NCBI RefSeq assembly: GCF_015277855.1
Contig: NZ_CP063812.1
Span: 558,001 to 622,000 of the forward strand
Source of the DNA: Microbacterium cremeum
GTDB taxonomy: Bacteria > Actinomycetota > Actinomycetes > Actinomycetales > Microbacteriaceae
Length of the DNA: 64,000 nucleotides
Reading direction: 5' to 3'
The notes under the pieces are model-generated. The model saw only the letters and a list, made by a program, of their open reading frames with translations, was not told the DNA's origin and made no database searches. Both the position numbers and the translations under genes were made by a program. This document shows, piece after piece, positions 6,759 through 58,583 of this stretch; position 1 is the first letter of the stretch; each line of letters begins with the position of its first letter.

Positions 6759-6792
6759 CGCGCAGCCGATCCGACAACCGAGAGGAATCGAC

Positions 6793-8448: not shown

Positions 8449-8476
8449 GCGCCGCGACCGAGAGAGGGGAGCCCGT

Positions 8477-35555: not shown

Positions 35556-35620
35556 GTCAAACCTCTCCATCGCGGCCTGTCGCCCACTCGGGAGTGCAGG
35601 CGATGTTGCGAGGATAGCGC

Positions 35621-35733
35621 GTTAGCGCTCACATCAACAGAATTAGGAAGTTGACTCGAGTCAACGAAGTTAGCGGTTTCCAGACATCGATGCTGGAGAT
35701 TCTTAACGAGTTACCGCTAACGTGAGCGATAAC
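35621..35733. promoter_or_regulatory. operator cluster between the divergent GH43 genes
   Basis: Four related 12-base sites occur: GTTAGCGCTCAC (35621-35632), GTTAGCGGTTTC (35669-35680), GTTACCGCTAAC (35710-35721) and, directly abutting, GTGAGCGATAAC (35722-35733). A perfect 16-base palindrome GTTGACTCGAGTCAAC lies at 35650-35665 and may be a separate protein's site. The central CG and 12-base symmetry are typical of LacI-family operators. Similar sites precede the secreted GH127/GH146-type gene and the ara operon. Confidence 0.65.
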
Positions 35734-35774
35734 AACCTGCCCGACGACGGTCAGTCACTTGATGGAGAGTGAAG

Positions 35775-43039: not shown

Positions 43040-46000
43040 CTACAGCACGCCGCAGGGAGCCTGGGCGTACGGCGCGTTCACCGTGGTGGAGACCTCCTCT
43101 CCGCCCACCGTCGCGGTAGCGGTCACCGTTGCTTCGCCCTGCGGAAGGACAGCCGCGCGAGTCGTGAACGCGTAGCTGCCGGTCTTGCCTGCGGCCAGCG
43201 TCACGGCTTTCGAGCCGTATGCCGTGTCGATGCGGACGGCGACGGGTACGTCATCGCCGTTCGCGACACTCACGGTGAGCACCGCCTTCCCTGCGACGCA
43301 GCGTGTCGCAGTCGTCGCAGTCACCGCCAGTTGCGGCTCCGTCGCCTCGCGAATGACCAGGGTGTAGGTCGTCGACGTCTCGTGATCCTGCGCGAACGAA
43401 TGGATCGTGAGTGTCTTCTCTTCGCCCGGTACGAGGCTGACCTCGCGCGGCTCGGTGTCGTCGATGAGGATGTTCCCGACCCGGACGAGCCCGGTGGGCA
43501 CGTTCGGTGTGGCCGTGAACGACATCGACGTGGCGCCCTGGGGGACTGTCACGACGTAGTCGGTCACATCGCCCGAGAACGACGGGGTCAGGACGCCGCC
43601 TTCGACGCTCAGACCGGTCAGCGCGGACTCCGTGCTGTAGGTGACGGGGCGCGAGGTGGCGACTCCGAAGACACCGCCGACGAACCCGCCCGTCGACTGG
43701 TACCGCACCGTCACGACCGGAATCCGGTTGCCCTGACCATCGAGCACCGGAGCCCCGTTCGCGTCGACCTTGTACCGCACGTCCGGGCCCGTCAGATACT
43801 GCGCAGGAATCTGGTCGACGACTTCATAGAAGACGCCGGAACCCGCTGCGTTGGTGATCTGCTGGGTCTTGAACAGTGTGTCGTTCAGGTACACCTGGAA
43901 CGAGCGCCCGTTGTCACCCGAGAAGTACGTCGTCTCCAGTCGGTTGATCGGGGCGGCCGGATCGATGGCCATGTCATAGCTGAACCATCCGTTGCTGTTC
44001 CCATGGCGGTACTGTCGGCCGTTGTGCACACCGACACTCGTCGTGCCTCCGGTCTTCAGGTTCTTCGCGGCCTCACCGTTGTTGTTGTCGAACGTGGTGA
44101 GGATGTCGATGAACCGTGCGAGATCGCGCTGACGCTTCTTCTCGTCCAGGATCGCCTGCTGGGCCGCCGGCGAGTCGGGAACCTCGAAGTTCATGTAGAT
44201 GGCGTAGCGCTGGCCGTGCTGCGAGTAGTGCGGGGTGTAGATCAGATCGCCACCGTTCCGCGTGTTCCGCAGTGTGAACTGCACCTTGCCGTCCGCGCTG
44301 TCTTCGATGCGCACGACGTTCTCCGCGACGTTCTCGTACCACTGCGTCGTGTTCTCGGTCGCGACCGTGACCGTCTGCTGGACGTTCGCGGAGGGCGCGA
44401 GAGCGATGCGCACGCTCACTCCGACCGTGCCCCAACCGGTCATGTTCTCGGTGCCCAGGCCGGCGCTCAGCACCGTCGGGCCGTACTTGAACGCGACGAA
44501 GTCGGGGTTGTCGGGAGTGTCGTAGGCGACGACCTCCATAGGCATCTTCAACTCGATGACATCGCCGGCTGCGACGTCGCTCAGAAGGATGTAGCCCTGT
44601 CGGACATCAGGCGTCACCGCGGCACCGTTCACCGTCAGTGTCGGCTCCCCGGCCACCCAGTCCGGCACACGCAGGCGAAGCGTTGCGCCGTCAGCGAGCT
44701 CGGTCCCCGTGAGCGCGTCGACGGTGACCCGCACCGTGTCGTCGTTGGGGAGGTTCGCCTCCTGGGTGATGCGCATGTTGCTGTCGGCGTGGTCGTACTG
44801 CGAACTGAAGTACAGGTTCACCCAGACTCCGCGGTCGCGTGAGAAGTACAGCGTGTCGGCGAGCTTGGAGAAGTTCTCCATGCCCGTGCCGACGCAGCAC
44901 CAGAACAGCTGGGATTCGCTCGGCGCCGGTCCGTAGATCTTGTAGTACCCCGGGGCCATCGGATTGAAGTACATGCTCATCCCGTTGTCGGGGTTCTGCG
45001 AAGACACGATCGTGTTGATGAACGTGTTCTCGTAGTAGTGCATGTACTTGACGTCCTGCGTCACCTTGAACAGCTCGCGCGACAGCTTGAGCATGTTGTA
45101 CTCGTTGCACGTCTCAGCTGTCTGAGGGTTGCCCGTCGATCCCTGTTGCGTCGCGTACCGCCACAGCGTGTCGGGGGCCCGGAAGTGCTCCGACTGACTG
45201 TTCGCACCGGTGACGTAGGTGTGATGATCCACCACCGTCTGCCAGAAGTTCTGTGCTGCCGAGAGGTACATCCCCAGGTTGTCCTTCTCGGACTGGGTGA
45301 GCATCTCGTAGTACTCGGGGTTCTCGGTGAACACCGTGTATCGCTTGAGCGCACCGATGAACTTCGGGATCGTCGTGTTCGCATGACGGCCGGGCAGGAC
45401 ATCAGTCCCGTTGGCGAGCGACTGGAAGAGGGTGACCTCGTCGAAGGCCTGCGCCGCGGTCTTGAAGTGAGGGTTTCCTCCCGACACGTCGAAGAGCTCG
45501 TACAGCGCCTCATTCATGCCGCCGTACTCGGTGCCCAGAAGCGCCGCGTTGTTGGTCAGCGTCGAGACGCGTCCGTGCATGTACTCGCCGAAGCCCTCGG
45601 CGACCTCGAGCGCGAGCGCCCCGAGTTCGCCCGGCACGTACTCGTACGTGTCGAGCAGGCCGGCCAGGATCTTGTGCAGGTTGTAGTAGGGCACGATCAC
45701 CTGGTCATCGGAGGTCCCTCGTCCTTCGACCGCATTGAGAGCAGAGTCGCGGAACGGGGCGATGTAGCCGGCGCGCGCCGTGCCGTCATATGTGTCCTGC
45801 ACCGCGGCGAGACCGCGGACAGTGGCCTCGAGGTCCGCGAGGACGTCGGCCTTGACCGTCGGGTCGTCGCTGTTGGCGTAGTTCATCGCCAGAGCCGACA
45901 TGTAGTGGCCGAAGGAGTGACCTCGGAAGTTCCACGTCACCGACCCGTTCTCCCATCCGGGGTACGTGGTCGTGTTGATCGCGAAGCTTCCCGGCTTGTA

Positions 46001-47245
46001 GGAGTTCGCGGTGACGCGGAACCAGTGCAGGTAGCGATCCGGATCGAGGGTGAGGAGGTACTCGATCTCCTTCTCCTGCGCGTTCTTCAGGTAGTCGTCC
46101 AGGATCACGACGTCCTCCAGACCGGTGTCCTGGATGGGGGTGACCACGGCGGGAACATACACCTCGAACGTCCTGGTCGTCGTGGGGCCGCCGAGGAAGC
46201 TGGCCCGTGCGGTCAGGGTGACCGTGAGGTCGTCCTGACCTGCTTCGGGGCGCACCACCTTGCCCGACGGGGCGATCGTCTCAGGATGCGAGGACGACCA
46301 CGACACCGTCGTCCCGTTCGACGTGGAGGTGGGCAGCGTCAGGTCGACGGTCGCGGTCGTCGGAACCGTGAGACCGGCCGCCCCTTCGGCCGCCATCGCG
46401 GCGCGATCCACCGTGCCGCCGCCGTCTTCGTAGAGCGCGACGACGCCGGTGAGGTCAGCGACGCCTTCGAACAGGCGATAGTCGTCCAGCGCGGACGTCA
46501 GGTAGCCGCCGTTGTAGTTCGGTCCGTTGTACCCGATCGACTTCGGCAGCGCCGGGGTGGCTTCGGCGATGATCCCGGTCGCGGTCGCGCTGACGGGCGT
46601 CTGCACCGAGGTGGGCACCTTCACGCCGTTGCGGTAGAGGGCGAACTGCTTCGATGCGCTGCTGTAGGTCGCCGTGATGTGCGTCCACTCGCCGACCGGG
46701 AAGAACGCCGCCCGATCGGTGGACGCGGCGCGCACCTCGTGCGGTTGTCCACCGCCCTGCCCGAACGAGAACAGGAGGGGGTTGGTGGCGTTGACCGATG
46801 ATGCGTACCAGCCGGCGCTGTTGTAGGCCCGCTTGTTCCACGAGATGATCTGCTCTCCCGACCCCATCGCCGCCGTGGGCTTGAACCAGAACGACAGCGT
46901 GAGTTCGGACGGCACGAGCTCGCTGCTCGTGCCGAGGTCGAGGTAGGTGCTTCCGCCGAGCTTGAGCGCAGCCGTCTCTGTCTTCACTCCCGGCACGTAC
47001 TCGTAGTTCAACGTCGCAGAGCCGTTGTGGCCCTTCAGCGCCGTCGGATGAGCGAGCGGGCTGCTGTCGGCGACGGTGTTCTCGAACATGAGCTCGAGAA
47101 CTGGGTCACCCAGCCCGAAGTCATCGAGGGCGTGAGCCGGCGCCACTCCGCCGAGAGCGATCGCCCCGGCTGCGACAGTTGCGACGGCCGATAGACCCGC
47201 ATGTCGCATCCTCTGATGGCGTCTCAGACGCTGTGAATCTCGCAT
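43040..47245 (-). CDS. secreted multidomain GH127/GH146-type beta-L-arabinofuranosidase
   Basis: The protein has 1401 residues. A signal peptide ends near APAHA. A LamG-like domain (about 50-255) and an Ig-like domain precede the DUF1680 catalytic region (about 385-900). That region has HSFGHYMSALAMNYA, Glu686 in SQSEHF, Glu711-Thr-Cys713 in AETCNEYNMLKL and Cys783-Cys784 in FWCCVGTGMENF, matching the zinc-cysteine site. Then come a beta-sandwich domain, a cadherin-like domain (ALTGLSVEGGVLTPSFS) and the shared two-cysteine module. The SEHF pattern fits the GH146-like branch better than HypBA1. GGGAGG precedes the ATG at 47245. It acts outside the cell on beta-linked L-arabinofuranose. Confidence 0.88.
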   Translation of the reverse strand: MRDSQRLRRHQRMRHAGLSAVATVAAGAIALGGVAPAHALDDFGLGDPVLELMFENTVADSSPLAHPTALKGHNGSATLNYEYVPGVKTETAALKLGGSTYLDLGTSSELVPSELTLSFWFKPTAAMGSGEQIISWNKRAYNSAGWYASSVNATNPLLFSFGQGGGQPHEVRAASTDRAAFFPVGEWTHITATYSSASKQFALYRNGVKVPTSVQTPVSATATGIIAEATPALPKSIGYNGPNYNGGYLTSALDDYRLFEGVADLTGVVALYEDGGGTVDRAAMAAEGAAGLTVPTTATVDLTLPTSTSNGTTVSWSSSHPETIAPSGKVVRPEAGQDDLTVTLTARASFLGGPTTTRTFEVYVPAVVTPIQDTGLEDVVILDDYLKNAQEKEIEYLLTLDPDRYLHWFRVTANSYKPGSFAINTTTYPGWENGSVTWNFRGHSFGHYMSALAMNYANSDDPTVKADVLADLEATVRGLAAVQDTYDGTARAGYIAPFRDSALNAVEGRGTSDDQVIVPYYNLHKILAGLLDTYEYVPGELGALALEVAEGFGEYMHGRVSTLTNNAALLGTEYGGMNEALYELFDVSGGNPHFKTAAQAFDEVTLFQSLANGTDVLPGRHANTTIPKFIGALKRYTVFTENPEYYEMLTQSEKDNLGMYLSAAQNFWQTVVDHHTYVTGANSQSEHFRAPDTLWRYATQQGSTGNPQTAETCNEYNMLKLSRELFKVTQDVKYMHYYENTFINTIVSSQNPDNGMSMYFNPMAPGYYKIYGPAPSESQLFWCCVGTGMENFSKLADTLYFSRDRGVWVNLYFSSQYDHADSNMRITQEANLPNDDTVRVTVDALTGTELADGATLRLRVPDWVAGEPTLTVNGAAVTPDVRQGYILLSDVAAGDVIELKMPMEVVAYDTPDNPDFVAFKYGPTVLSAGLGTENMTGWGTVGVSVRIALAPSANVQQTVTVATENTTQWYENVAENVVRIEDSADGKVQFTLRNTRNGGDLIYTPHYSQHGQRYAIYMNFEVPDSPAAQQAILDEKKRQRDLARFIDILTTFDNNNGEAAKNLKTGGTTSVGVHNGRQYRHGNSNGWFSYDMAIDPAAPINRLETTYFSGDNGRSFQVYLNDTLFKTQQITNAAGSGVFYEVVDQIPAQYLTGPDVRYKVDANGAPVLDGQGNRIPVVTVRYQSTGGFVGGVFGVATSRPVTYSTESALTGLSVEGGVLTPSFSGDVTDYVVTVPQGATSMSFTATPNVPTGLVRVGNILIDDTEPREVSLVPGEEKTLTIHSFAQDHETSTTYTLVIREATEPQLAVTATTATRCVAGKAVLTVSVANGDDVPVAVRIDTAYGSKAVTLAAGKTGSYAFTTRAAVLPQGEATVTATATVGGEEVSTTVNAPYAQAPCGVL

Positions 47246-47311
47246 GCCAACCTCCCTGTTGGACCGACATCCGCCGTGGATGTCGAGCATGGCTTGTGCC
47301 GCCAAGGTAGT

Positions 47312-47479
47312 GGTAGCGGTAACATCGCGCAAGGGGGAAAGGTCGATCGATCAATGTGCGAAGTCGGCACTCGGGCGGGATCGGGTGGTGCCGACGTCGC
47401 CTGCTCCTCCGCGCCGGATCACGGCCGGAAGGGGCGCACCGGGAACTCGATCTTGTTTCCGCTAACTGTTCTCGGTAAC
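47312..47479. promoter_or_regulatory. operator-like sites upstream of the secreted GH127-type gene
   Basis: Three 12-base sites match the GTTANCGNTAAC pattern: GGTAGCGGTAAC (47312-47323), GTTTCCGCTAAC (47455-47466) and GTTCTCGGTAAC (47468-47479). The first begins 67 bases before the GH127-type start codon; the other two form a close pair in the middle of the 518-base divergent gap. I see no gene in the rest of this gap (47480-47763), and no clear promoter boxes for the surface-protein gene at 47764. Confidence 0.6.
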
Positions 47480-47763
47480 ATCATCGCGAGAGCCCGCCGA
47501 TCCATCGAAGGATCCGTACGCAAAGGTGCCAGATGCTCCAGCAGACCACCCCGCAGTCGCGGGTGACGTCGTCGGCGCACCCTGTCGCGCACCGGTCGTC
47601 CGGACCTGTGACGACGGTGACGACGGATGCCGCAGCATCCGTCGTCGACCGTACGACGGTGCATTCGGCCGGGGCTGGAGATCGTGCGAGACCCGAAGGC
47701 CGGACGGTCCGGTCGCTCGCGAAGTCGGACGGCGCAGCTGCCGGCCGGGGATTGGAGAAACGC

Positions 47764-48390
47764 ATGAACAAGAAGGGCCTGCTGGTCCGCACGGCGGTCG
47801 GCGTCGTCGGCAGCGTGATGCTGATCGGTGCCGCCGGTGCCGCGATCGCAGACGAGGTCGGCGAGGGCGAGGACGTCAGCGTCAACGTCGAGATCACGCC
47901 GCAGGAGCCGGTCGGAGCGCTGACGATGTCGGTCGCGAGCGACTCGACGACGCTCACCGAGGGCGACGCCCCGGCCGAAGGCGTCCGTCAGTTCAACGGC
48001 TTGCTTCCGACGGTCACCGTGACCGACGACCGCGAGACCGTGCCCGAGGGCGTCTTCTGGTACGTGACCGGGCAGTCGTCGTCGTTCTCGACCGTGGGCG
48101 GCGACACCATCACCGCCGACTACCTGGGCTGGGCGCCGCGCCTGCTCACCGAGGCGCCCGCGGGTGAGGTCGCCGAGGGGCCGGTGGTCGACACCGTGAT
48201 CGACGGCGGTCCCAATGGCGTCGGCCTCACCGGCGAGGAGCTGCTCGCGATGAGCCTCGATTCCAGCGACGCACGTCCGACGGGATCGTGGTCCGCGAAC
48301 GCCGACCTGTTCCTGAAGACGCCGTCCACCGTCGCGCCGGGCAGCTACTCGGCGACGCTCACGCTGACCCTGTGGGAGGACGCGAGCTGA
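47764..48390 (+). CDS. secreted WxL-like surface protein
   Basis: The protein has 208 residues. A signal peptide ends near AIADE (about 30). The mature part is a beta-rich domain starting VSVNVEITPQEPVGALTM and ending SYSATLTLTLWEDAS. This resembles the end of WxL cell-wall-binding domains, though the two canonical Trp-x-Leu motifs are not clear. WxL proteins bind peptidoglycan non-covalently in firmicutes and are encoded with DUF916 proteins, as here. GGAGA precedes the ATG. It is the first of three surface-protein genes, with a strong hairpin after it. Confidence 0.65.
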   Translation: MNKKGLLVRTAVGVVGSVMLIGAAGAAIADEVGEGEDVSVNVEITPQEPVGALTMSVASDSTTLTEGDAPAEGVRQFNGLLPTVTVTDDRETVPEGVFWYVTGQSSSFSTVGGDTITADYLGWAPRLLTEAPAGEVAEGPVVDTVIDGGPNGVGLTGEELLAMSLDSSDARPTGSWSANADLFLKTPSTVAPGSYSATLTLTLWEDAS

Positions 48391-48418
48391 CACGTCGACC
48401 ACGCAATCGTGTTGAATC

Positions 48419-48450
48419 GGGTCGGGGCCGCGCACGCACGGCCCCGACCC
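48419..48450 (+). terminator. hairpin between the WxL-like and DUF916 genes (attenuator)
   Basis: GGGTCGGGGCCG (48419-48430) pairs perfectly with CGGCCCCGACCC (48439-48450). It ends 19 bases before the DUF916 start. Partial read-through would give more WxL-like protein than membrane partner. Confidence 0.65.
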
Positions 48451-48469
48451 TGACGTCTGGACCCGCACT

Positions 48470-49540
48470 TTGCCCGAATTCCCGCACCGCACCACCGTGC
48501 TCCACCGGGTGCTGCTCGTCGCAGCGCTCGTGGCGACGCTCACATCGGCGAGCGCGCCCGCGTTCGCCGATGACACCGACGACGCCGCCGGGCAGCCGAC
48601 CGTCCGCTGGTCGGTCACGCCCGCCGACGAGAACGGACCCGATGGCCGCACAGCCGTCGAGCTCGACGTCGATCCGGGCGAGACGGTCTCGGACCACTTC
48701 GCGGTGCGCAATGTCAGCGCCGACGAGGTGACTTTCCGGCTGACGGCCGCGGACGGCTTCTACACCCGCACCGGTCGCTTCGACATCCTGCCCGCCGATC
48801 AGGAGTCGGTGGACTCCGGCACCTGGATCTCGATCCCCGACGAGGTCACCGTCGCGCCCGGTGCGACCGTCGTCGTGCCGTTCGGGATCGCCGTGCCCGA
48901 GACCGCCGAGCCGGGCGACCACGCCGCCGGCATCACGGCGTCGGTGCTGTCTGTGCAGACCGGCGACGGCGGCACGAGCGTCGGCGTCGAGAGCCGCGTC
49001 GGCTTTCGCGTGCTCACGCGCGTGACCGGTGAGATCGCCCCGGCCGCCGCCGTCACCGACCTCGGGGCGCAGTACGCGCTGTCGTGGAATCCGTTCCGTC
49101 CCGGCGAGATCACGGTGACGTTCGACGTCGTGAACGAGGGCAACACGCGGCTCATCGCCGAAGGCGCCGTCGAGGCGGGCGGCCGGAGCGTCGTCTTCCC
49201 GGCCGAGGACGGCATCCGTCAAGAACTGCTCCCGGGCGACACCCGCACGCTCACGGCCGTCGTCGAGGACGTGTGGCCGCTGTTCGTCGTGCCCACCACC
49301 GTCACGCTCTCGCCGATCGTCGTCACGATGGACGGCGAGAGCTCGACCCTCACGCCCGTCGTCGCCAGCGTGCCGGCGTGGGCCGTGCCCTGGCCGCAGC
49401 TCATCATCCTCGCGGGCCTCGCGCTCGTGATCTGGGCGGTGCTGCGTGGGCGCACCCGCTCGCGCCGACGGATCGATGCGCTCGTCGCCGAGGCGCGCGA
49501 GGCCGGCCGCCGCGAGGCCGAGAAGGTGGACGCCCCGTGA
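48470..49540 (+). CDS. DUF916 (WxL-interacting) protein with C-terminal membrane anchor
   Basis: The protein has 356 residues. A signal peptide ends near APAFADD. The DUF916 domain is recognised by RWSVTPADENGPDGRTAVELDVDPGETVSDHFAVRNVS and WISIPDEVTVAPGATVVVPFGIAVPETAEPGDHAAGI. A second beta-sandwich domain follows, then one helix (LIILAGLALVIWAVLRG) and a basic tail. In lactobacilli such CscA-type proteins anchor WxL proteins at the cell surface. The start is the weakest point: TTG at 48470 is used here, with GTG at 48497 or 48509 as alternatives. It overlaps the next gene by four bases. Confidence 0.82.
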   Translation: MPEFPHRTTVLHRVLLVAALVATLTSASAPAFADDTDDAAGQPTVRWSVTPADENGPDGRTAVELDVDPGETVSDHFAVRNVSADEVTFRLTAADGFYTRTGRFDILPADQESVDSGTWISIPDEVTVAPGATVVVPFGIAVPETAEPGDHAAGITASVLSVQTGDGGTSVGVESRVGFRVLTRVTGEIAPAAAVTDLGAQYALSWNPFRPGEITVTFDVVNEGNTRLIAEGAVEAGGRSVVFPAEDGIRQELLPGDTRTLTAVVEDVWPLFVVPTTVTLSPIVVTMDGESSTLTPVVASVPAWAVPWPQLIILAGLALVIWAVLRGRTRSRRRIDALVAEAREAGRREAEKVDAP

Positions 49541-50058
49541 GTCGTCATCGCACGTCGTTCACCGCCGTGGTCGCGGGCGTCGCCCTCGTGGGCTCGCTGC
49601 TGCTCGCACCCGGGCTTCCGGCTGCGGCGGACGAGCCCGATCCCGACTCGGAGGGCGTGACGATCTCGGTCGAGATCGCCCCGCTCGACTGCACGTGGCC
49701 GCCCGGCAAGGGCCCCAAGCCCGGAAAGCCGGGCCACGCCGGCCGGCCCGGCCCGCCCGACGCGCCCTGTCATCCCGGCAATCCCGACAACCACCCCGGC
49801 AACCCCGGCAACCCGGGCAAACCAGAGAAGCCCGAGAAGCCCGATAAGCCGGGCAAGCCGGGGAAGACCGACGTCGCGTCGTCCTCGACGGCGGATGCCG
49901 CACCCGCGGCGCCCGCCGACGCATTCGTGCAGGGTGTCGTGGTCGCAGTCGTGTCGGCGCTGGCAGGTCCGCACGCGCTGCTTCTCGCTCCCGTCGTGGC
50001 GTCGTCCCTTCCCAGCACGGGCGACCTCTACGATGTGCAGAGCAAGAGAGCGAGGTGA
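49537..50058 (+). CDS. secreted Pro/Gly-rich surface protein with LPSTG motif
   Basis: The protein has 173 residues. A signal peptide ends near LPAAADE. After TISVEIAPLDCTWPPGKG comes a collagen-like run of Gly, Pro, Asn and Lys triplets (about residues 55-112), then a hydrophobic stretch and LPSTG at 158-162, 11 residues from the end. In normal sortase substrates the hydrophobic helix follows LPXTG; here it precedes it, so sortase anchoring is doubtful. By position and size it corresponds to the small CscD-type proteins. The GTG start overlaps the DUF916 stop. Confidence 0.75.
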   Translation: MSRHRTSFTAVVAGVALVGSLLLAPGLPAAADEPDPDSEGVTISVEIAPLDCTWPPGKGPKPGKPGHAGRPGPPDAPCHPGNPDNHPGNPGNPGKPEKPEKPDKPGKPGKTDVASSSTADAAPAAPADAFVQGVVVAVVSALAGPHALLLAPVVASSLPSTGDLYDVQSKRAR

Positions 50059-50064
50059 TCGGCC

Positions 50065-51084
50065 ATGTCGGATCAGGCGACGCGAGGCTGGCAGCGCCCC
50101 AGCATCTATGACGTGGCCAAGCAGGCAGGCGTCTCGCACATGACCGTGTCGCGCGTGCTCAACGGCCACCCGAACATCCGCGAGTCCACTCGCGAGCGCG
50201 TGCTGCAGGCGATCGACGAGATGAACTACACGCGCAGCTCCATCGCGCGTGCTCTCGCGACGCGCCGGGCGATGCGCATCGGAGTCCTCGTCGACAGCCC
50301 GGTGCAGTGGGGCCCGAACAGCACGCTGCGCGCCATCGAGAGCGCCGCGCGCGACGCCGGCTACGCGATCAGCGCCTTCTCGATCTCGGACGACGAGGAG
50401 TCGAAGATCGACACCGGGGTGGTGGAGCTCGTCACCCAGGGCGTCGATGCGCTCTGCGTCATCGCGCCCCGCGCCTCGTCGCTCGACCTGCTGCGCCAGC
50501 AGAGCACGGGCCTGCCGACCCTCGTCATCAAGGCCGAGCCGGATGCCGAGATGCACACGGCCGCGGTCGATCAGCGTGCCGGCGCCATGACTGCCGTGAT
50601 GCACCTCATCGAGCTCGGTCACCGCTCGATCGCGCACCTGTCCGGACCCCTCGACTGGTACGACGCGCGGGCCCGCGAGCAGGGCTGGCGCGACGCGCTC
50701 GCCGACGCCGGGCTCTCGATCGCGCCGCCGGTCGTCGGCGACTGGACGTCGGACTACGGCTATACGTTCGGCAAGACCCACGACTTCTCCGAGGTGACCG
50801 CGGTGTTCGCGGCGAACGATCAGATGGCGCTGGGTGTCGTCCACGGGCTCGCCGAACGCGGCCTGCGCGTGCCCGACGACGTGAGCGTCGTGGGTTTCGA
50901 CGACCTCCCCGACGCGCGCCACTTCCTGCCGCCGCTGACGACCGTGCGGCAGGATTTCGCCGCCCTCGGCGCGCTCGCACTCCAGATCCTGATCGCCGCG
51001 ATCGAGGGCGAGGACGTCACCGAGCACGACATCATCGAGCCCCGACTGGTGGTGCGGCGCTCGACCTCGGCGCCCCGCTCCTGA
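50065..51084 (+). CDS. LacI-family regulator, likely of arabinose/arabinan genes
   Basis: The protein has 339 residues. The helix-turn-helix is SIYDVAKQAGVSHMTVSRVLNG, the hinge MNYTRSSIARALATRR, and the sensor domain includes VTAVFAANDQMALGVV and DDVSVVGFDDLPDARHFLPPLTTVRQDF. GAGGTGAT precedes the ATG, 6 bases after the LPSTG gene, so it is probably cotranscribed with the surface genes. It lies next to the importer/ara operon and near all GTTANCGNTAAC sites, which makes it the best candidate for their repressor, an AraR-like role played by a LacI protein (inference). Confidence 0.9.
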   Translation: MSDQATRGWQRPSIYDVAKQAGVSHMTVSRVLNGHPNIRESTRERVLQAIDEMNYTRSSIARALATRRAMRIGVLVDSPVQWGPNSTLRAIESAARDAGYAISAFSISDDEESKIDTGVVELVTQGVDALCVIAPRASSLDLLRQQSTGLPTLVIKAEPDAEMHTAAVDQRAGAMTAVMHLIELGHRSIAHLSGPLDWYDARAREQGWRDALADAGLSIAPPVVGDWTSDYGYTFGKTHDFSEVTAVFAANDQMALGVVHGLAERGLRVPDDVSVVGFDDLPDARHFLPPLTTVRQDFAALGALALQILIAAIEGEDVTEHDIIEPRLVVRRSTSAPRS

Positions 51085-51174
51085 GCCGGTGGCGCGCCGC
51101 CGACCGCGGCGCGCGGACCCGCCGTGCGCGGCGGTCGCGGCATCCGATGTGTCCGCTCACGGACGCGTGTTAAT

Positions 51175-51243
51175 GTTCGCGGTAACGGTGGCGTAACAAA
51201 TCCCGAAATGGCAGTTGCGCGCGAGCATGTTAGCGCGCACAAT
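51175..51243 (+). promoter_or_regulatory. promoter and operators of the importer/ara operon
   Basis: GTTCGCGGTAAC (51175-51186) and GTTAGCGCGCAC (51229-51240) match the shared operator pattern. Possible promoter boxes are TTGCGC (51215-51220) and CACAAT (51238-51243), 17 bases apart, so the second operator fills the spacer and touches the -10 box, a position suited to repression. The 87 bases to the start codon form the leader. Confidence 0.55.
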
Positions 51244-51330: not shown

Positions 51331-52335
51331 ATGTCAAACAAGAAGCGGATGCTCGGCCTGATCGGCTTCGTCGGTGCGGGAGCCCTCGCGCTCGGCCTCT
51401 CCGGCTGCGCCGGCGGCGACGCAGGCGGTTCCGGCGACGGCGGGTCCGGCGACGAGCTCACCACGGTCGGCTTCGTTGCGGTCGGCCCCGAGGGCGGATG
51501 GCGCAATGCCAACGAGCAGGCGATCAAGGACGCCTTCACCGAGGAGGCGGGCTTCGACCTGAAGTACGCTCCCGCGGCCAGCCCCACCGACCAGAAGTCG
51601 CAGATCGACGCGTTCGCGACGTTCGTGAACGACGAGGTCGACGTCATCCTCCTCACCGCGACCGAGGCCTCGGGCTGGGAGGACTCGCTCGAGCTGGCCC
51701 AGGAGGCCGAGATCCCCGTCATCCTGCTCGACCGCGGTGTCGAGGCCAGCGACGACCTGTACGTCACCCGCATCGCCCCCGACAACGTGAACGTCGCCGG
51801 CATGGTCGGCGAGTGGGCTGTCGAGACCTTCCCGGAGGGCGCGAACTACTTCACGCTCGAGGGCGTCCCCGGCCTGTCGGTCGTCAACGAGCGCAACGAG
51901 GGCTTCGATGCAGCGATCGAGGGCAAGGACGGCTGGAACAAGATCGGCGCGCAGACCGCCAACTGGACGGCTGACGAGGGCAAGTCGGTCATCGAGACCG
52001 TGCTGAAGGAGAACCCCGACCTTCAGTTCATCTTCGCCCAGAACGACGAGATGGGCATCGGCGCGGCCGCTGCCGTCAGCGCCGCGGGTCTCGTCCCCGG
52101 CACCGACGTCAAGATCGCCACGATCGACGGCACCACGCCGGCTCTCGAGGCGCTCGCCGCCGGCGAGCTGAGCTTCGTCGCTCAGTACAACCCCTTCTTC
52201 GGCGACCTCGCCGTGCAGGCGGTCAACGACGCGCTCGCGGGCGACGACGTCGAGAAGACGATCATCGTCGAGGGTGAGACCTTCAACTCGCCCGAGGCCG
52301 CGCAGGCCGCGATCGAAGAGGGCAAGGGCTTCTGA
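51331..52335 (+). CDS. sugar-binding lipoprotein, YtfQ-like (furanose ABC importer)
   Basis: The protein has 334 residues. The lipobox is LSGC (Cys26). The mature domain follows E. coli YtfQ closely in plan: VGFVAVGPEGGWRNANEQAIKDAF, ILLTATEASGWEDSLELAQEAEIPVILLDRGV and IFAQNDEMGIGAAAAVSAAGLVPGTD. YtfQ binds galactofuranose, and the related Shewanella system takes up L-arabinose. The araDBA genes on the same transcript make L-arabinose, probably in furanose form, the likely ligand. AAGGAGGAG precedes the ATG. A strong hairpin after the gene could keep its level above that of the membrane parts. Confidence 0.92.
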   Translation: MSNKKRMLGLIGFVGAGALALGLSGCAGGDAGGSGDGGSGDELTTVGFVAVGPEGGWRNANEQAIKDAFTEEAGFDLKYAPAASPTDQKSQIDAFATFVNDEVDVILLTATEASGWEDSLELAQEAEIPVILLDRGVEASDDLYVTRIAPDNVNVAGMVGEWAVETFPEGANYFTLEGVPGLSVVNERNEGFDAAIEGKDGWNKIGAQTANWTADEGKSVIETVLKENPDLQFIFAQNDEMGIGAAAAVSAAGLVPGTDVKIATIDGTTPALEALAAGELSFVAQYNPFFGDLAVQAVNDALAGDDVEKTIIVEGETFNSPEAAQAAIEEGKGF

Positions 52336-52366
52336 CCCGACCCCGTCGACCGGACGAGAAGTGATG

Positions 52367-52402
52367 CGAGCGGGGGTTTGCCGTTCCGGCGGCCCCCGCT
52401 CG
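52367..52402 (+). terminator. hairpin after the binding-protein gene (attenuator)
   Basis: CGAGCGGGGG (52367-52376) pairs perfectly with CCCCCGCTCG (52393-52402), with a smaller GCCG/CGGC stem inside the loop. It stands between the binding-protein and ATPase genes and fits partial termination. Confidence 0.65.
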
Positions 52403-52456
52403 TACTCGTTTCCGTCCCCGTACGAGCCCGCGCAGTGACGAAGGAATCCAGCAGCC

Positions 52457-54064
52457 ATGATTGAACCGATCGCGATCGTCGAGGTCCGAAACGCGTCCAT
52501 CAGCTTTCCGGGAGTGAAGGCGCTCGACGACGTCAGCTTCCGGCTGCTTCCCGGTGAAGTCCACACCCTCATGGGGGAGAACGGCGCCGGAAAGTCCACT
52601 CTCATCAAGGCGCTCACCGGCGTCTACCAGATCGACTCCGGCGAGATCGTCGTGGCCGGACAGGTGAGGCACTTCAACAGCACCGCATCCGCTCAGGCGG
52701 CGGGAATCTCCACCGTGTACCAGGAGGTCAACCTGTGCACGAACCTCACCATCGGTGAGAACGTCATGCTCGGGCACGAGGTGCACGATTGGACGGGCGT
52801 CAACTGGCGCAAGACCTATGCCCGCGCCCGTGAAGCCCTCGCCCGGATGGGTCTCGGCGACCTCGACCCTCGCGCACCCCTGTCATCGATCTCCATCGCG
52901 CTGCAGCAGCTCGTCGCCATCAGCCGCGCGATGGTCACCAACTCCAAGGTGCTCATCCTCGATGAGCCCACCTCCAGCCTCGATGCGAACGAGGTCGAGG
53001 TGCTCTTCGACGTGATCCGCCGCCTCCGCGACCAGGGTGTTGCGATCCTCTTCGTCTCGCACTTCCTCGACCAGGTCTACGCGATCAGCGACCGCATCAC
53101 GGTCCTGCGGAACGGCAAGTTCGTCGGCGAGTACCTCAAGCGCGACCTCGACCGCACGCAACTCATCTCGAAGATGATCGGCAAGGACTTCGAGGCGCTC
53201 CGCGCCCTCGGCTCCAACCGGCAGACGCAGCAGCGCGACCGCAGCGTCACTCCGCTCTTCGCCGCCGAAGACCTCGGTCGCAAGGGAGCGATCGAGCCCA
53301 CGAACCTCGAGATCCACGCCGGCGAGGTCGTCGGGTTCGCCGGGCTCCTGGGGGCCGGCCGCACCGAGCTCGCCAGGCTCATCGCCGGGGCTGACAAGGC
53401 AGACACCGGGGCGATCCGGGTCCGTGGCAAGAAGGTCTCGCTGAACTCTCCCGTCGCAGGGCTCGCGCACGGCATCGCCTACTCCACGGAGAACCGCCGC
53501 GAAGACGGCATCGTGGGGGATCTGAGCGTCCGCGAGAACATCATGCTCGCCGTCCAGGCCCGGCGCGGCTGGCTCCGCCGTGTCCCCGCCCGCGAGGTCG
53601 ATCAGTTGGTGAAGACGTACATGGCGCGGTTCAGCGTCCGCCCGAACGACCCCGACCGTCCCATTCGCCTGCTCTCGGGCGGCAACCAGCAGAAGGTGCT
53701 GCTCGGCCGCTGGCTGGCCACCAACCCGCACCTGCTCCTGCTGGACGAGCCGACGCGCGGTATCGACGTCGGCGCCAAGGCCGACATCCAGGAGACCGTC
53801 GCCGAACTCGCCGAAGGCGGGATGGGCGTGGTGTTCATCTCCTCCGAGCTGGAAGAGGTGGTTCGACTCTCCGAGCGGATCGTCATCCTCAAGGACCACG
53901 AGAAGGTCGGTGAAGTCGTCAACGGGCCCGAAGTCACCGCCGAGAGCATCGTCTCGGTCATCGCCACAGAGTCCGGCAATGTGGCGGAGAAGACCGTCGA
54001 TGCGCTTGCCGACGAGGTGGTCGCCGGTGAATCCGCCGCCAACCATGAAGGGAGCGCGTCATGA
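52457..54064 (+). CDS. sugar ABC transporter ATP-binding protein, two-domain (YtfR/RbsA type)
   Basis: The protein has 535 residues and two nucleotide-binding domains. The first has Walker A GENGAGKST and Walker B LILDEPTSSLD. The second has the degenerate Walker A GLLGAGRTE usual in this CUT2 family, with signature LSGGNQQKV and Walker B LLLDEPTRGID. It powers the furanose importer. The tail overlaps the first permease start by four bases. The first-domain signature (SSISIALQQL) is also degenerate, as in RbsA relatives. Confidence 0.93.
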   Translation: MIEPIAIVEVRNASISFPGVKALDDVSFRLLPGEVHTLMGENGAGKSTLIKALTGVYQIDSGEIVVAGQVRHFNSTASAQAAGISTVYQEVNLCTNLTIGENVMLGHEVHDWTGVNWRKTYARAREALARMGLGDLDPRAPLSSISIALQQLVAISRAMVTNSKVLILDEPTSSLDANEVEVLFDVIRRLRDQGVAILFVSHFLDQVYAISDRITVLRNGKFVGEYLKRDLDRTQLISKMIGKDFEALRALGSNRQTQQRDRSVTPLFAAEDLGRKGAIEPTNLEIHAGEVVGFAGLLGAGRTELARLIAGADKADTGAIRVRGKKVSLNSPVAGLAHGIAYSTENRREDGIVGDLSVRENIMLAVQARRGWLRRVPAREVDQLVKTYMARFSVRPNDPDRPIRLLSGGNQQKVLLGRWLATNPHLLLLDEPTRGIDVGAKADIQETVAELAEGGMGVVFISSELEEVVRLSERIVILKDHEKVGEVVNGPEVTAESIVSVIATESGNVAEKTVDALADEVVAGESAANHEGSAS

Positions 54065-55143
54065 ATCGCGTGAAGACCGCGCTGCGCACGCCCTGGTTCT
54101 GGGGCATCGTCGGCATCGCGCTGCTGCTGCTGATCAACTCGATCAAGAACCCGGCGTACCTCGCGCTCAGCATCAACCCGACGACGGGAATGCTCACGGG
54201 CAACGTGCTCGACATCCTGCGCGTGTCGGCGCCGATCATCATGATCGCGCTCGGCATGACGTTCGTCATCGCCACGGGCGGGATCGACCTCTCCGTCGGT
54301 TCGATGATGGCGGTCGGCGGGGCGGTCGCCATGGAGACGCTTCGCAGCCTGGACGGATCGTCACCCATCGGCGCGATGTTCGCGGCGATCGGCCTGGCGG
54401 TCGTGCTCGCGATGGTCCTCGGCGCGATCAACGGCTTCTTGGTGTCGGTCGTCGGGCTGCAACCGTTCATCACGACGCTGATCATGATGCTCGCCGCCCG
54501 CGGGATCGCCCGCGTCGTGACCGGCGGGCAGAACACCAACGCCACGAACGAGCCCTTCCGCCTTCTCGCGAACGGACAGATCTTCGGCATCCCGACCAGC
54601 TTCGTGCTCGCCATCGCGATCGTCCTGCTCATTGCGCTCGCGATGCGCCGCACGGCGCTCGGTCTCATGATCGAGTCCATCGGGATCAACCCGCACGCGA
54701 GCCGGCTCGCCGGTATCCGGCCCCGGCCCATCCTGTTCGGCGTCTATGTCCTCTCCGCTGCACTCGCCGCGGTCGGCGGCCTGTTCAGCGTCTCGGAAGT
54801 GATGACGGTGAGCGTAGGCGGCACGGGCAACCTGATGGAGCTCGATGCGATCCTCGCCGTCGTCATCGGCGGCACCTCGCTCGCCGGTGGCAAGTTCTCC
54901 ATCGTGGGATCCACCGTCGGGGCGCTCCTCATCGCGACCCTGAACAAGACCGTGCTCTTCCTCGGCATCCCTGCCGCCGCGACGCCGGCCTTCAAGGCCG
55001 TCGTCATCATCGTCCTCGTGCTGCTGCAGTCGGAGCGCGTGCGCTCGTGGGCCTTCGGCGGCTCGTCACGCAGATCCAGCGGGCCGACTCGACCCGCAGC
55101 GGAACAGGGCACGCCGCCCGTCTCGAAGGAGGTCGTCGCATGA
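54061..55143 (+). CDS. sugar ABC transporter permease, YtfT-like (CUT2)
   Basis: The protein has 360 residues with about nine to ten helices. The CUT2 permease motifs are clear: GMTFVIATGGIDLSVGSMMAVGG, GLQPFITTLIMMLAARGIARV, and AVVIGGTSLAGGKFSIVGSTVGALLI. It forms half of the membrane channel of the furanose importer. It overlaps both neighbours by four bases. Confidence 0.93.
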   Translation: MNRVKTALRTPWFWGIVGIALLLLINSIKNPAYLALSINPTTGMLTGNVLDILRVSAPIIMIALGMTFVIATGGIDLSVGSMMAVGGAVAMETLRSLDGSSPIGAMFAAIGLAVVLAMVLGAINGFLVSVVGLQPFITTLIMMLAARGIARVVTGGQNTNATNEPFRLLANGQIFGIPTSFVLAIAIVLLIALAMRRTALGLMIESIGINPHASRLAGIRPRPILFGVYVLSAALAAVGGLFSVSEVMTVSVGGTGNLMELDAILAVVIGGTSLAGGKFSIVGSTVGALLIATLNKTVLFLGIPAAATPAFKAVVIIVLVLLQSERVRSWAFGGSSRRSSGPTRPAAEQGTPPVSKEVVA

Positions 55144-56210
55144 GCTCTACGCGCACGCTCGCCGAAGCAATACCCCCCGTCCCCAACCTGGCGGAGACCA
55201 AGAACACCGCGGTCGCCGGTGGTCTGGCTCGCCTCTGGGAGCGCAATCAGACGCTGATCCCGACCCTCGCCGCGCTCGTGCTGCTGTTCGGCATGCTCAT
55301 CTACGCCGAGGTGGCGTACGGCCGGGTGTTCCACGCGGGAACCATGTCGAGCCTCCTCATCAGCTTCGCACCCACGATCATCCTGGCCGTCGGAATGACG
55401 ATCGTCATCGTCTCGGGCGGAATCGACCTGTCCGTCGGTGCCGTCGTCGCCTTCAGCTCGGTCGCCGGCGTGATGCTCATGAACATCGGCATCGACGGCT
55501 GGGCATCGATGGTCCTCATGATCCTGTTCGGTGCGCTCTTCGGCGTGATCGCAGGCGTCATGGTCCAGTACTTCAGCGTGCAGCCCTTCATCGCGACGCT
55601 GGCGATGATGTTCCTGGCCCGCGGACTGGCCTCGATGCTCTCGACCACGCCCATCCAGGCGCCCGAGAACTCGCCCATCCACCTGCTGGCCACCGACTGG
55701 AAGCTCATCGACGGGCCCAAGGTCAACGACCTCACCATCACCCCCGGCCTGATCATCGCCGTGCTGGTGGTGCTGGGCGGGATGTTCTACATGCACCGCA
55801 GCCGCAGCGGGCGCACGGTCTACGCCATCGGCGGCAACGAGTCGTCGGCGGGTCTGATGGGCTTGCCGGTCGCGCGGACGCGGGTGGGGATCTACATCAT
55901 CTCGGGCGCGCTGGCCGGCCTCGCGGCGGTGGTCTACACCGCTGAAGTCGGCGGCAAGGCGCAGAACGTCACCGGCATCGGCTGGGAGCTCGACGCGATC
56001 GCGGCCGTCGTCATCGGCGGAACACTGCTCACGGGCGGCTACGGCTACATCCTCGGCTCCGTCGTCGGCGTGTTCGTGATCGCCGCCATGCGTCTCATCA
56101 TCACGAAGGACGGCACGATCAACCCCGAATACCTCACGATCATCACGGGCGGCGTTCTGCTCGTGTTCGTGCTGCTGCAGCGCGTTCTCACGCGGCGGAG
56201 GGCAAGCTGA
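55140..56210 (+). CDS. sugar ABC transporter permease, YjfF-like (CUT2)
   Basis: The protein has 356 residues. It shows GMTIVIVSGGIDLSVGAVVAF, SVQPFIATLAMMFLARGLASML, GNESSAGLMGLPVARTRVGIY and AVVIGGTLLTGGYGYILGSVVGV, matching the second permease of YtfQRT-YjfF systems. The N-terminal 40 residues are cytoplasmic. Its stop shares one base with the araD start, so transport and catabolism are on one message. Confidence 0.93.
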   Translation: MSSTRTLAEAIPPVPNLAETKNTAVAGGLARLWERNQTLIPTLAALVLLFGMLIYAEVAYGRVFHAGTMSSLLISFAPTIILAVGMTIVIVSGGIDLSVGAVVAFSSVAGVMLMNIGIDGWASMVLMILFGALFGVIAGVMVQYFSVQPFIATLAMMFLARGLASMLSTTPIQAPENSPIHLLATDWKLIDGPKVNDLTITPGLIIAVLVVLGGMFYMHRSRSGRTVYAIGGNESSAGLMGLPVARTRVGIYIISGALAGLAAVVYTAEVGGKAQNVTGIGWELDAIAAVVIGGTLLTGGYGYILGSVVGVFVIAAMRLIITKDGTINPEYLTIITGGVLLVFVLLQRVLTRRRAS

Positions 56211-56917
56211 TGGCAGCTCTCACACCCGAGGTCCAGGCATCCGTCGACGCCGTCCGCGAGGACGTCGCGAAGCTCCACGGCGAGCTCGTCCGGTACGGGC
56301 TCGTCGTCTGGACCGGCGGCAACGTCTCGGGCCGCGTGCCCGGCGCCGACCTGTTCGTCATCAAGCCCTCGGGCGTCTCGTACGACGACCTCGCGCCCGA
56401 GAACATGATCCTGTGCGACCTCGACGGCAACGTCATCCCCGGCACGCCCGGCAGCGACCGGTCGCCGTCGAGCGACACCGCGGCGCACGCGTACGTGTAT
56501 CGGAACATGCCCGACGTCGGGGGAGTCGTGCACACGCACTCCACCTACGCGGTGGCGTGGGCGGCGCGCGGCGAGGAGATCCCGTGCGTCATCACGGCGA
56601 TGGCCGACGAGTTCGGCGGACCCATCCCGATCGGACCGTTCGCGATCATCGGCGACGACTCGATCGGCCGCGGCATCGTCGAGACGCTCTCGGGCCACCG
56701 CTCCCGTGCCGTGCTGATGCAGAATCACGGCCCCTTCACGATCGGCACCTCGGCCAAGGACGCGGTCAAGGCCGCGGTCATGGTGGAGGACGTGGCCCGC
56801 ACCGTGCACCTCGCCCGTGAGGCGGGTCCGCTGATCCCCATCCCGCAGGACGCGATCGACCGCCTGTACGACCGGTACCAGAACGTCTACGGGCAGACCG
56901 GGGACGAGAGGCGATGA
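56210..56917 (+). CDS. araD: L-ribulose-5-phosphate 4-epimerase
   Basis: The protein has 235 residues, the usual length for AraD. The class II aldolase/epimerase fold supplies zinc ligands His108 and His110 (VVHTHSTYA) and His173 (MQNHGPF). TGGNVSGR and [10 protein letters not shown] bind the phosphate and substrate. The enzyme converts L-ribulose 5-phosphate to D-xylulose 5-phosphate, the last step before the pentose phosphate pathway. The ATG shares its first base with the preceding stop codon, and the gene overlaps araB by four bases. Confidence 0.94.
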
Positions 56918-58521
56918 CCGGGATGCAGCAGGCCGACGTCGCGGCGGCGATCCAGGACGGACGCGCGGTGCTCGGGATCGAGCTCGGCTCCACCCGCATC
57001 AAGGCGTGCCTGGTGCTCGCCGACGACCCGTCGACCGTGCTCGCCGTCGGCAGCCACGCGTGGGAGAACCGCTTCGTCGAGCGCCTGTGGACGTACACGC
57101 TCGAGGACGTGTGGACCGGCCTGCAGGCCGCGTACGCCGACCTCGTCGCCGACGTGCGGCGGACCCACGGCGTCGGACTCGACAGGCTCGGCGCGATCGG
57201 CGTGTCGGCGATGATGCACGGCTACCTCGCGTTCGACGAGAGCGGCGAACTGCTCACGGCGTTCCGCACGTGGCGCAACACCAACACCGACCGGGCTGCG
57301 GCGGTGCTGTCGGAGCTGTTCGGGGCCAACATTCCGCTGCGCTGGTCGGTCGCGCATCTCTACCAGGCGGTGCTCGACGAGGAGCCCCACATCCCCGACG
57401 TGCGCTTCCTCACGACGCTCGCCGGCTACGTCCACTTCAGGCTCACCGGGCGCAAGGTGCTCGGCATCGGCGACGCGTCGGGCATGTTCCCGATCGACCC
57501 GGCCACCCGCGACTACGACCTCGGCATGATCGAGAAGTTCGACCGGCTCGTGGCGGATCGCGCGTACGGGCTGCACGTCTCGGACCTGCTCCCCGAGGTG
57601 CTCGTCGCGGGGCAGCCTGCCGGCGAGCTCACCGCCGAGGGCGCCGCGCTGCTCGACCCCAGCGGTGCGCTGCAGCCGGGCGCGGTGTTCTGCCCGCCCG
57701 AGGGCGACGCCGGCACCGGCATGGTGGCGACCTGCTCGGTCGCCCCGCGCACCGGCAACGTGAGCGCGGGCACGAGCATCTTCGCGATGGTCGTGCTCGA
57801 GCGGCCGCTCCAGCGCGTGCACCACGAGCTCGATGTGGTGGCGACGCCGGCGGGCGACCTGGTGGCGATGGTCCACTGCAACAACGGGGCGAGCGAGCTG
57901 GCCGCGTGGGTCGGCCTGTTCGAGCGGTTCGCCGGGGTGACCGGCGGCGAGCTCGACGCCGACGAGGTGTTCGAGGCCCTCTTCCGCGAGGCGCTGGACG
58001 GCGACCCGGATGCCGGGGGCCTGCTGGCCTACAACCACCTGGCCGGCGAGCCCATCGCCGGCCTCACCGAGGGCCGGCCGCTGTTCGTGCGCACGCCCGA
58101 CAGCCGCTTCACCCTCGCGAACTTCATGCGGGCGCAGCTGTACGGCGTGTTCGGCACGCTCGCCCTCGGGATGCGCGTGCTCGAGACGGAGGGTGTCGCG
58201 CTCGATCGGATGTTCGCGCACGGCGGCATCTTCCGCACCGCGGGAGTCGCGCAGCGGTTCCTCGCCGGTGCGATCGGTGCGCCGGTCGCCGTCGGCGAGA
58301 CCGCTTCGGAAGGCGGTGCCTGGGGCATCGCGGTGCTCGCGGCGTACCTGTCGGCCGCGGGCGAGGCAGACCTCGACGCGTACCTGCGCGAGCGCGTGTT
58401 CGGCGGCGCCGACTTCGCGATCGTCGAGCCCGACCCCGAGGACGTGCCCGGGTTCGCCGCCTACCTCTCGCGGTACCGCGCGGGGCTCGCCGTCGAGGCC
58501 GCGGCCGTCCGCGCCCTCTAG
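56914..58521 (+). CDS. araB: L-ribulokinase (FGGY-family)
   Basis: The protein has 535 residues. FGGY-kinase features include the phosphate-binding [15 protein letters not shown] near the start, [41 protein letters not shown] and, in the second domain, [38 protein letters not shown]. Its place between araD and araA identifies the substrate as L-ribulose; by sequence alone another pentulokinase would be possible. It phosphorylates L-ribulose with ATP. The chain is slightly shorter than E. coli AraB and of the actinobacterial type. Confidence 0.88.
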
Positions 58522-58583
58522 ACCGTTACGACTCGTCGCTGGCCTCCTGGCTCAACGACCGGAATCACCGAAGGACACACCGC

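What the first reader, a model, noticed from the sequence alone, without database searches (positions are those of the whole stretch)
47764..50058. A csc-like cell-surface complex inside an actinobacterial arabinan locus
Three adjacent genes encode a WxL-like secreted protein, a DUF916 (WxL-interacting) protein with a C-terminal membrane helix, and a small Pro/Gly-rich protein with LPSTG. In lactobacilli the csc clusters combine exactly these three kinds (WxL proteins, CscA with DUF916, small LPXTG CscD) and were proposed to act in plant-polysaccharide use. Here the set lies between a secreted GH127-type enzyme and an arabinose-type importer, runs into a LacI regulator after 6 bases, and has operator-like sites upstream. 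It may hold secreted enzymes or arabinan at the wall. The family likeness is from motifs; the role is inference.
Basis: partly seen in the sequence, partly recalled or inferred. Interest (0 to 1): 0.8.

Follow-up and report, generated by a model that had tools for sequence, protein, structure and literature searches.

The report
Actinobacterial surface dock for secreted enzymes
Three small genes beside sugar-cutting enzymes in an actinobacterium look like a distant cousin of a known lactobacillus cell-surface complex, and they travel with a so far unnamed tail that ends the enzymes, which suggests a docking system that holds many different enzymes at the cell wall.

Summary
W2 (48470-49540) is a DUF916 protein with the fold of WxLIP. 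W1 (47764-48390) has no Pfam hit and no literal W-x-L; an actinobacterial intermediate family (larger proteins, several of them enzymes, ending in the same domain) links it to the WxL superfamily. W3 (49537-50058) resembles CscD, but its LPSTG lies behind the membrane helix and is no sorting signal here; 27 of 34 related W3 proteins do carry L(P/A/G)xTG before the helix. The trio is not arabinan-specific: at most 25 of 78 W1 loci have arabinose-type genes.

New: all four large secreted enzymes of the locus end in an unnamed ~97-residue domain (CTD), without a Pfam or NCBIfam family. CTD follows small W1: 34 of 34 genomes with small W1 against 20 of 114 others (relatives), 19 of 19 against 9 of 277 (class-wide); 33 of 33 small W1 genes have a CTD within 15 kb. 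I infer that W1/W2 display enzymes, in cis by a WxL-like tail or in trans through CTD. W3, and enterococcal CscD-like proteins, look like an anchored copy of the WxL N-terminal strand. Binding is not shown.

The parts
47764..48390 (+). W1: secreted 208-aa protein, small WxL-like
48470..49540 (+). W2: DUF916 protein of WxLIP fold with signal peptide and C-terminal membrane helix; start at 48470 (TTG) or 48497 (GTG)
49537..50058 (+). W3: CscD-like: signal peptide, strand VTISVEIAP as in W1, Pro/Gly/Lys spacer, membrane helix; no sorting motif before the helix
50008..50022 (+).
50065..51084 (+). LacI-family regulator, 6 bases after W3
43049..43339 (-). CTD of the GH127 enzyme
43040..47332 (-). 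secreted GH127 enzyme, divergent from W1 (start uncertain)
38991..39281 (+). CTD of a GH43 enzyme
35808..39284 (+). secreted GH43 enzyme with Laminin_G_3 and aBig_2
32109..32399 (-). CTD of a GH43 enzyme
32103..35555 (-). secreted GH43 enzyme with Laminin_G_3 and aBig_2
62829..63098 (+). CTD of a GH43-like protein
60132..63104 (+). secreted GH43-like protein (GH43 E 0.0099 only) with aBig_2 and Laminin_G_3
47311..47480 (.). operator-like sites between GH127 and W1
35620..35734 (.). operator-like sites between the two divergent GH43 genes
51174..51241 (.). operator-like sites before the importer
51331..56210 (+). sugar importer: binding protein (scanned), ATPase and two permeases (read from sequence)
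56210..60095 (+). arabinose-type genes: class II aldolase family (scanned), kinase-like and isomerase-like (read from sequence, not scanned)

Best explanation
W1, W2 and, where present, W3 form an actinobacterial WxL/WxLIP-type cell-surface complex that displays secreted enzymes at the wall. W2 is the membrane-held WxLIP-like partner that stabilises the WxL-like domain. Enzymes join in two ways: in cis, by a W1 domain fused to their C-terminus, or in trans, by the CTD, an unnamed, probably Ig-like C-terminal domain that docks on the stand-alone W1 (or on W1/W2). W3 anchors the assembly: it offers, on a spacer held by a membrane helix or by a sortase, a copy of the WxL N-terminal beta-strand that can complete a WxL fold, as donor strands do in pili. 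In the window this would hold one GH127 and three GH43-type proteins at the surface next to the sugar importer, under one LacI-type regulator. Shown here: family relations, co-occurrence, gene order, C-terminal position of CTD, shared strand, shared operator-like sites. Inferred: every binding step, the donor-strand role of W3, wall location, and expression on arabinan.
For: W2 is in 64/64 genomes with a W1 domain. W2 fold: best match solved WxLIP; profile match to WxLIP of lactic acid bacteria and relatives E 1e-7. W1 to fused W1 domains E 2e-32; fused domains to WxL E 7.5e-5 and PF13731 E 7e-4 and 2e-3 in two of nine scanned. Three W1 relatives bear the UniRef name 'WxL domain-containing protein' (P0098, P0107, P0120). 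CTD: 237 of 246, or 200 of 221 distinct by another model, end within 2 residues of the C-terminus; no Pfam/NCBIfam family; on many catalytic types. Small W1 and CTD: 34/34 vs 20/114, 19/19 vs 9/277 class-wide; CTD within 15 kb of 33/33 full-length small W1 genes, directly upstream on the same strand in 25. Of proteins of 600+ aa next to W1, 62/65 have CTD, none of 11 more than six genes away. No called protein of the two locus sets has both CTD and W1 domain. Own genome: 8 of 10 CTDs lie within 17 kb of the two small W1 genes. W3 strand 29/34 against 1.5 expected.
Against: No binding data. 9 of 54 CTD genomes have no W1 domain found and 9 of 28 class-wide lack small W1. 28 of 78 W1 loci have no W2 called within three genes, 24 of these with CTD, so W2 must serve from elsewhere or is not needed. 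Seven of 50 W1-W2 loci have no CTD protein called in the fetched stretch. A general domain of such secreted enzymes (aBig_2) also tracks small W1, 27/34 vs 20/114, so part of the correlation is lifestyle. 50 of 84 W2 genes have no W3-like gene coupled to them. W1's own fold search gave only middling matches and listed no WxL chain. Genomes are related, so P values overstate independence; genome searches score a limited number of candidates, so absences are soft.
Confidence: 0.53

Rival explanations
1. W1/W2 bind polysaccharide or another cell, not the enzymes; CTD is a separate wall- or glycan-binding tail, and the genes sit together only because both serve surface polysaccharide use.
For: Csc and WxL clusters are described as surface complexes for carbohydrate use or host binding (PMC1534035 abstract, PMC10599100 parts 1-2); CTD enzymes already carry lectin-type domains; some CTD genomes lack W1.
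Against: Direct adjacency of CTD and small W1 (25/33 immediately upstream) and the alternative fusion of the W1 domain to enzymes point to enzymes as the cargo.
Confidence: 0.23
2. Pure lifestyle co-occurrence: CTD is a structural cap of actinobacterial hydrolases, W1/W2 an unrelated surface pair, both enriched in polysaccharide degraders.
For: aBig_2 shows a similar though weaker correlation with small W1.
Against: Within aBig_2-positive genomes small W1 still goes with CTD 27/27 vs 9/20, within aBig_2-negative 7/7 vs 11/94; fall-off of CTD with distance from W1.
Confidence: 0.13
3. W1 polymerises by donor-strand exchange into a thin fibre with W2 as chaperone-like base and W3 as plug; enzymes ride on the fibre.
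Confidence: 0.1

Closest known systems
csc / WxL-WxLIP gene clusters of lactic acid bacteria and relatives (CscA, CscB, CscC, CscD; PMC1534035, PMC10599100, PMC9772566)
   Same: DUF916 protein with membrane helix and WxLIP fold, small secreted WxL-like protein, small (often LPxTG-like) third protein, larger proteins with a C-terminal WxL-like domain in sister loci, plant-polysaccharide setting.
   Different: The small WxL-like protein lacks both literal W-x-L motifs; W2 has no DUF3324 sequence match; no large WxL protein was found in this locus; enzymes carry CTD instead; W3 of the window lacks a sorting motif before its helix; actinobacterial host.
Cellulosome (cohesin-dockerin) enzyme display (recalled)
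   Same: One partner with many different enzymes that share an interchangeable terminal domain.
   Different: No scaffoldin repeats; CTD has no dockerin match; binding untested.
Chaperone-usher donor-strand pilins (structural neighbours)
   Same: Beta-sandwich with a conserved N-terminal strand left out of the model; partner shaped like a pilus chaperone.
   Different: Middling structural scores; no usher considered; Gram-positive wall.

Membership tests
WxLIP (DUF916-DUF3324-TM, CscA), W2 | PF06030 match | tested here: met
   29.1 bits over cut-off; 26.4 bits, under it, by hmmscan
WxLIP (DUF916-DUF3324-TM, CscA), W2 | two beta domains then a membrane helix, fold of WxLIP | tested here: met
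WxLIP (DUF916-DUF3324-TM, CscA), W2 | DUF3324 (PF11797) sequence match | tested here: not met
   not among families at E<=1; so I file W2 as a DUF916 protein of WxLIP fold, not as a canonical WxLIP
WxL domain (PF13731), W1 | Pfam match of W1 | tested here: not met
   none for W1 at E<=1, nor for W1 and 37 relatives at E<=10
WxL domain (PF13731), W1 | two Trp-x-Leu motifs | tested here: not met
   W99-Y-V101 and L201-T-L203
WxL domain (PF13731), W1 | Asp-x-Arg before motif 1, spacing of about 110 and 106 residues as in small WxL (PMC9772566) | tested here: met
   D88-x-R90, 98 residues before, 102 between; D88, R90, W99 invariant in 22 sequences; Asp and Arg sit 11 and 9 before W instead of 8 and 6
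WxL domain (PF13731), W1 | profile relation to WxL | tested here: inconclusive
   direct 4.4%, P 0.009; through fused domains 99.9% then 62%, E 7.5e-5, PF13731 E 7e-4 and 2e-3 below cut-off in two of nine
WxL domain (PF13731), W1 | fold of a solved WxL domain | tested here: inconclusive
   no WxL chain among the rows shown
CscD (small LPxTG protein), W3 | signal peptide and LPxTG-helix-positive tail | tested here: not met
   window W3 has no such motif before the helix; 27 of 34 W3-like proteins do
csc cluster | DUF916 protein plus WxL proteins in one operon | tested here: inconclusive
   DUF916 met; one divergent WxL-like protein; no fused W1 domain among called window proteins
csc cluster | proteins lie at the cell wall / bind peptidoglycan | not testable with these tools
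   needs protein

The most novel reading that the evidence does not exclude
Actinobacteria have a cellulosome-like display system built on WxL-type proteins: many unrelated secreted hydrolases (up to 26 CTD copies in one searched genome) share an unnamed C-terminal docking domain that plugs into a small WxL-like adaptor held by a WxLIP-like protein, and the third protein (W3, and CscD of csc clusters) is an anchored donor strand. It would give CscD, whose interactions were called unknown in 2006 (PMC1534035), a definite mechanism.
Probability: 0.35. Interest if true: 0.88.

Novelty: new variant of a known kind. Interest (0 to 1): 0.7.

Why it matters
A shared, unnamed C-terminal domain that follows a WxL-like adaptor through a whole bacterial class would be a general answer to how these bacteria keep large secreted hydrolases near the cell, and a handle for enzyme display. 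It extends the WxL/csc systems, reported mainly from Bacillota (over 91% of WxL sequences in PMC9772566), to actinobacteria with hydrolases as cargo, and turns the 20-year-old question of what the tiny CscD proteins do into a simple strand-binding test.

Tried and rejected

Limits. Strand comparison with enterococcal CscD-like proteins: only four (L165, L167, L168, L169, all Enterococcus plasmids); L167 has no LPXTG in its open frame and L168 reads IPNMG; 4 of 4 N-termini score above shuffles, but the linker control of L168 scored 37, above its own N-terminus (35), because Pro-rich linkers match too. In some searches my automatic labels were shifted by one gene ('araD' = second permease, 'perm2' = first permease, 'perm1' = ATPase, 'araB' = epimerase); the 25 of 78 count therefore rests on binding protein, two permeases, epimerase and araA, two or more over 100 bits, and may include other sugar importers. 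Dropped or chosen rows: two of 80 loci without a called W1, the 80 being the best of 362; A4 holds 26 of 112 non-redundant CTDs; A5 holds 63 of 79 W1 of the 80 loci plus 11 database proteins and the window; the 20 stretches are a choice from the hits; nine larger proteins were scanned. The 246 CTD proteins include duplicates between the two locus sets (221 distinct; that script ended with an error after printing these numbers). The CTD model was built from these loci, so adjacency is not fully independent; searches use other genomes for the most part. Genome searches score only some first-look candidates (for example 17 of 54 CTD candidates for G000, which found 9 CTDs where one search found 10). 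Gene calls are from my own simple caller, so starts and short genes may be wrong; one search does not depend on it. Literature: Hassan 2023 parts 1-2 of 4, Siezen 2006 abstract and one section, PMC9772566 passages, PMC10509167 passages, the rest listings only; searches on actinobacterial WxL/DUF916, donor strand and CscD listed nothing that I recognised as this system, within open-licence PMC only.

Full report
What is there. The window is 558001-622000 of a 3.98-Mb single-contig genome. The nearest named homologues are Microbacterium. W1 (47764-48390), W2 (48470-49540) and W3 (49537-50058) lie in a row, W2 and W3 overlap by four bases, and a LacI-family gene starts six bases after W3. Upstream, on the other strand, is a secreted GH127 enzyme. 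Further out are two GH43 enzymes. Downstream are a sugar importer, arabinose-type catabolic genes and a GH43-like protein.

W1. No Pfam WxL match for it or for 37 relatives, though three relatives are named 'WxL domain-containing protein' in UniRef. Landmarks of small WxL proteins given in PMC9772566 are in place: Asp-x-Arg before the first motif, 98 residues before it (about 110 expected) and 102 between the motifs (about 106 expected); but the motifs read W-Y-V and L-T-L. A direct profile comparison with 12 WxL proteins is weak (4.4%, P 0.009), though it aligns just the D-x-R...W...F stretch. In other genomes the W1 domain forms the C-terminus of larger proteins: 21 such proteins in 20 stretches that I chose from the hits, with W2 in 19 of the 20. 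Of nine larger proteins scanned, five have enzyme families (GH53, GH30, esterase, phosphodiesterase, phosphatase). The fused domains match W1 at E 2e-32 and WxL at E 7.5e-5 over 108 columns (probability 62%), and two of the nine hit PF13731 at E 7e-4 and 2e-3, below its cut-off. I conclude that W1 is a divergent relative within the WxL superfamily, not a WxL protein by the strict definition.

W3. Among 84 distinct W2 neighbourhoods, 34 have a translationally coupled small gene with a membrane helix. Of these 34, 29 carry a strand VxVxVxIxP in the first 80 residues (1.5 expected from shuffles), and 27 have L(P/A/G)xTG within 22 residues before the helix. The strand is like the N-terminal strand of W1 (best local score beats shuffles at P<=0.05 in 31 of 34; the W1 profile itself hits the window's W3 at E 9e-4). 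In the window, its closest relative L077, and L038 and L042, the motif before the helix is missing and the spacers are long (84-121 residues; two further proteins without the motif have 18 and 27; with the motif 16-70). The window's LPSTG lies behind the helix, where L038 reads APYDVVSKKAR. The own genome holds two sortase-family genes. Four CscD-like proteins from Enterococcus plasmids also begin with a strand like that of WxL proteins, for example AYDSNGVTSFFGVYEEP against AEYTSNGAITFEADPNP, with the caveats given under Tried and rejected. Siezen 2006 proposed that CscD proteins help to anchor the others by as yet unknown interactions. Hassan 2023 reports that a WxLIP strand is predicted to fill a gap in WxL. 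A donor-strand role of W3/CscD would fit, and is my inference. In the W1 model residues 36-50 have no assigned strand and low confidence.

CTD. The four secreted proteins of the window end in a domain of about 97 residues with two cysteines that are invariant in the 26-row alignment. In the fetched loci 246 proteins carry it (221 distinct); by one model 237 of 246, by another 200 of 221 distinct, end within two residues of the C-terminus. No Pfam or NCBIfam family describes it. Of 41 cluster representatives scanned, 12 match GH43, 3 GH59, 2 GH95, 2 GH27, 3 metallophosphoesterases, others lectin or binding domains. So it is an interchangeable tail.

Link between CTD and W1. Among 148 relatives, a W1 domain is found in 64 and all 64 have W2 (W2 in two more). 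Small W1 is in 34, all with CTD, against 20 of the other 114. A control domain, aBig_2, gives 27 of 34 against 20 of 114; within aBig_2-positive genomes CTD still goes with small W1 (27/27 against 9/20), and within negative ones too (7/7 against 11/94). Class-wide (296 genomes) 19 of 19 genomes with small W1 have CTD, against 9 of 277; all 33 full-length small W1 genes have a CTD within 15 kb and 25 have one ending within 800 bases upstream on the same strand. In 78 W1 loci from named genomes, 50 have W2 within three genes on the same strand, 67 a CTD protein within three genes, 47 directly upstream. Proteins of 600 residues or more carry CTD in 62 of 65 cases next to W1, 66 of 94 at two to three genes, 11 of 22 at four to six, 0 of 11 beyond. 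In the window's own genome 8 of 10 CTDs lie within 17 kb of the two small W1 genes. The genomes are related by descent, so the Fisher values in the calls overstate the evidence. Against a strict need: 9 genomes with CTD have no W1 domain found, and 28 of 78 W1 loci have no W2 close by.

Arabinan. At most 25 of 78 loci have two or more importer/araA/epimerase-type genes; 43 of the 53 others have CTD beside W1. The set is therefore a general surface module that lies under arabinose-type control here. Operator-like sites recur before W1, before the importer and between the GH43 genes (8 sites, 1.1 expected), so the module is probably co-regulated with the enzymes.

Mechanism. I think the module displays enzymes: cis by fusion to the WxL-like domain, trans by CTD docking on stand-alone W1. 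W2 stabilises W1 at the membrane-wall interface, W3 ties the assembly by a strand. Order of confidence: W2 is a DUF916 protein of WxLIP fold (shown), W1 in the WxL superfamily (well supported), module acts with CTD enzymes (supported by co-occurrence), CTD binds W1 (inferred), W3/CscD donates a strand (inferred).

Novelty. Databases name actinobacterial W2 as DUF916 or WxL-peptidoglycan-domain protein and W1 mostly as hypothetical, in a few cases as WxL, so single members are known; the link to a common enzyme tail, the cis/trans pattern and the strand copy in W3/CscD were not recognised in the paper searches made.

Noticed in passing
L006 (own genome C1:3743500-3759500), genes at 5447-10270: A second, diverged set in the same genome: large protein ending in a W1 domain, W2 paralogue (34% identity), a Gly/Pro-rich W3-like protein, and a sortase-family hit at C1:3749333-3749572 just beyond. 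Sortase genes also follow WxLIP in the Enterococcus plasmids L165 and L167.
   Followed up: partly
L037 (own genome C1:3247000-3263000): A second small W1 (64% identity) between CTD enzymes with no W2 beside it, so it would have to share the W2 of another locus.
   Followed up: partly
L135, L136, L139, L141, L152: In Cellulosimicrobium and a Sphaerisporangium record W1-W2 sits between genes that look like a Tad/Flp pilus set and genes that look like prfB-ftsE-ftsX (read from sequence starts in L136 and L139, not scanned), with no CTD enzyme called nearby.
   Followed up: no
L157 and L158: W2 genes with a preceding hypothetical protein of W1 size and GH43 enzymes on plasmids of Clavibacter phaseoli and Cellulosimicrobium protaetiae, so the module may move.
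   Followed up: no
L197 4294-4500: A CTD-bearing gene (cut by the end of the stretch) lies beside a fused-W1 + W2 pair, so the cis and trans forms can be neighbours.
   Followed up: no
L169 3250-4617: A lytic polysaccharide monooxygenase gene lies in a WxL/LPXTG/WxLIP stretch of an Enterococcus faecium food-isolate plasmid.
   Followed up: no
window 39647-42954: Three-gene set of the permease (PF03773) / DUF1980 type between the enzymes, apparently unrelated.
   Followed up: no
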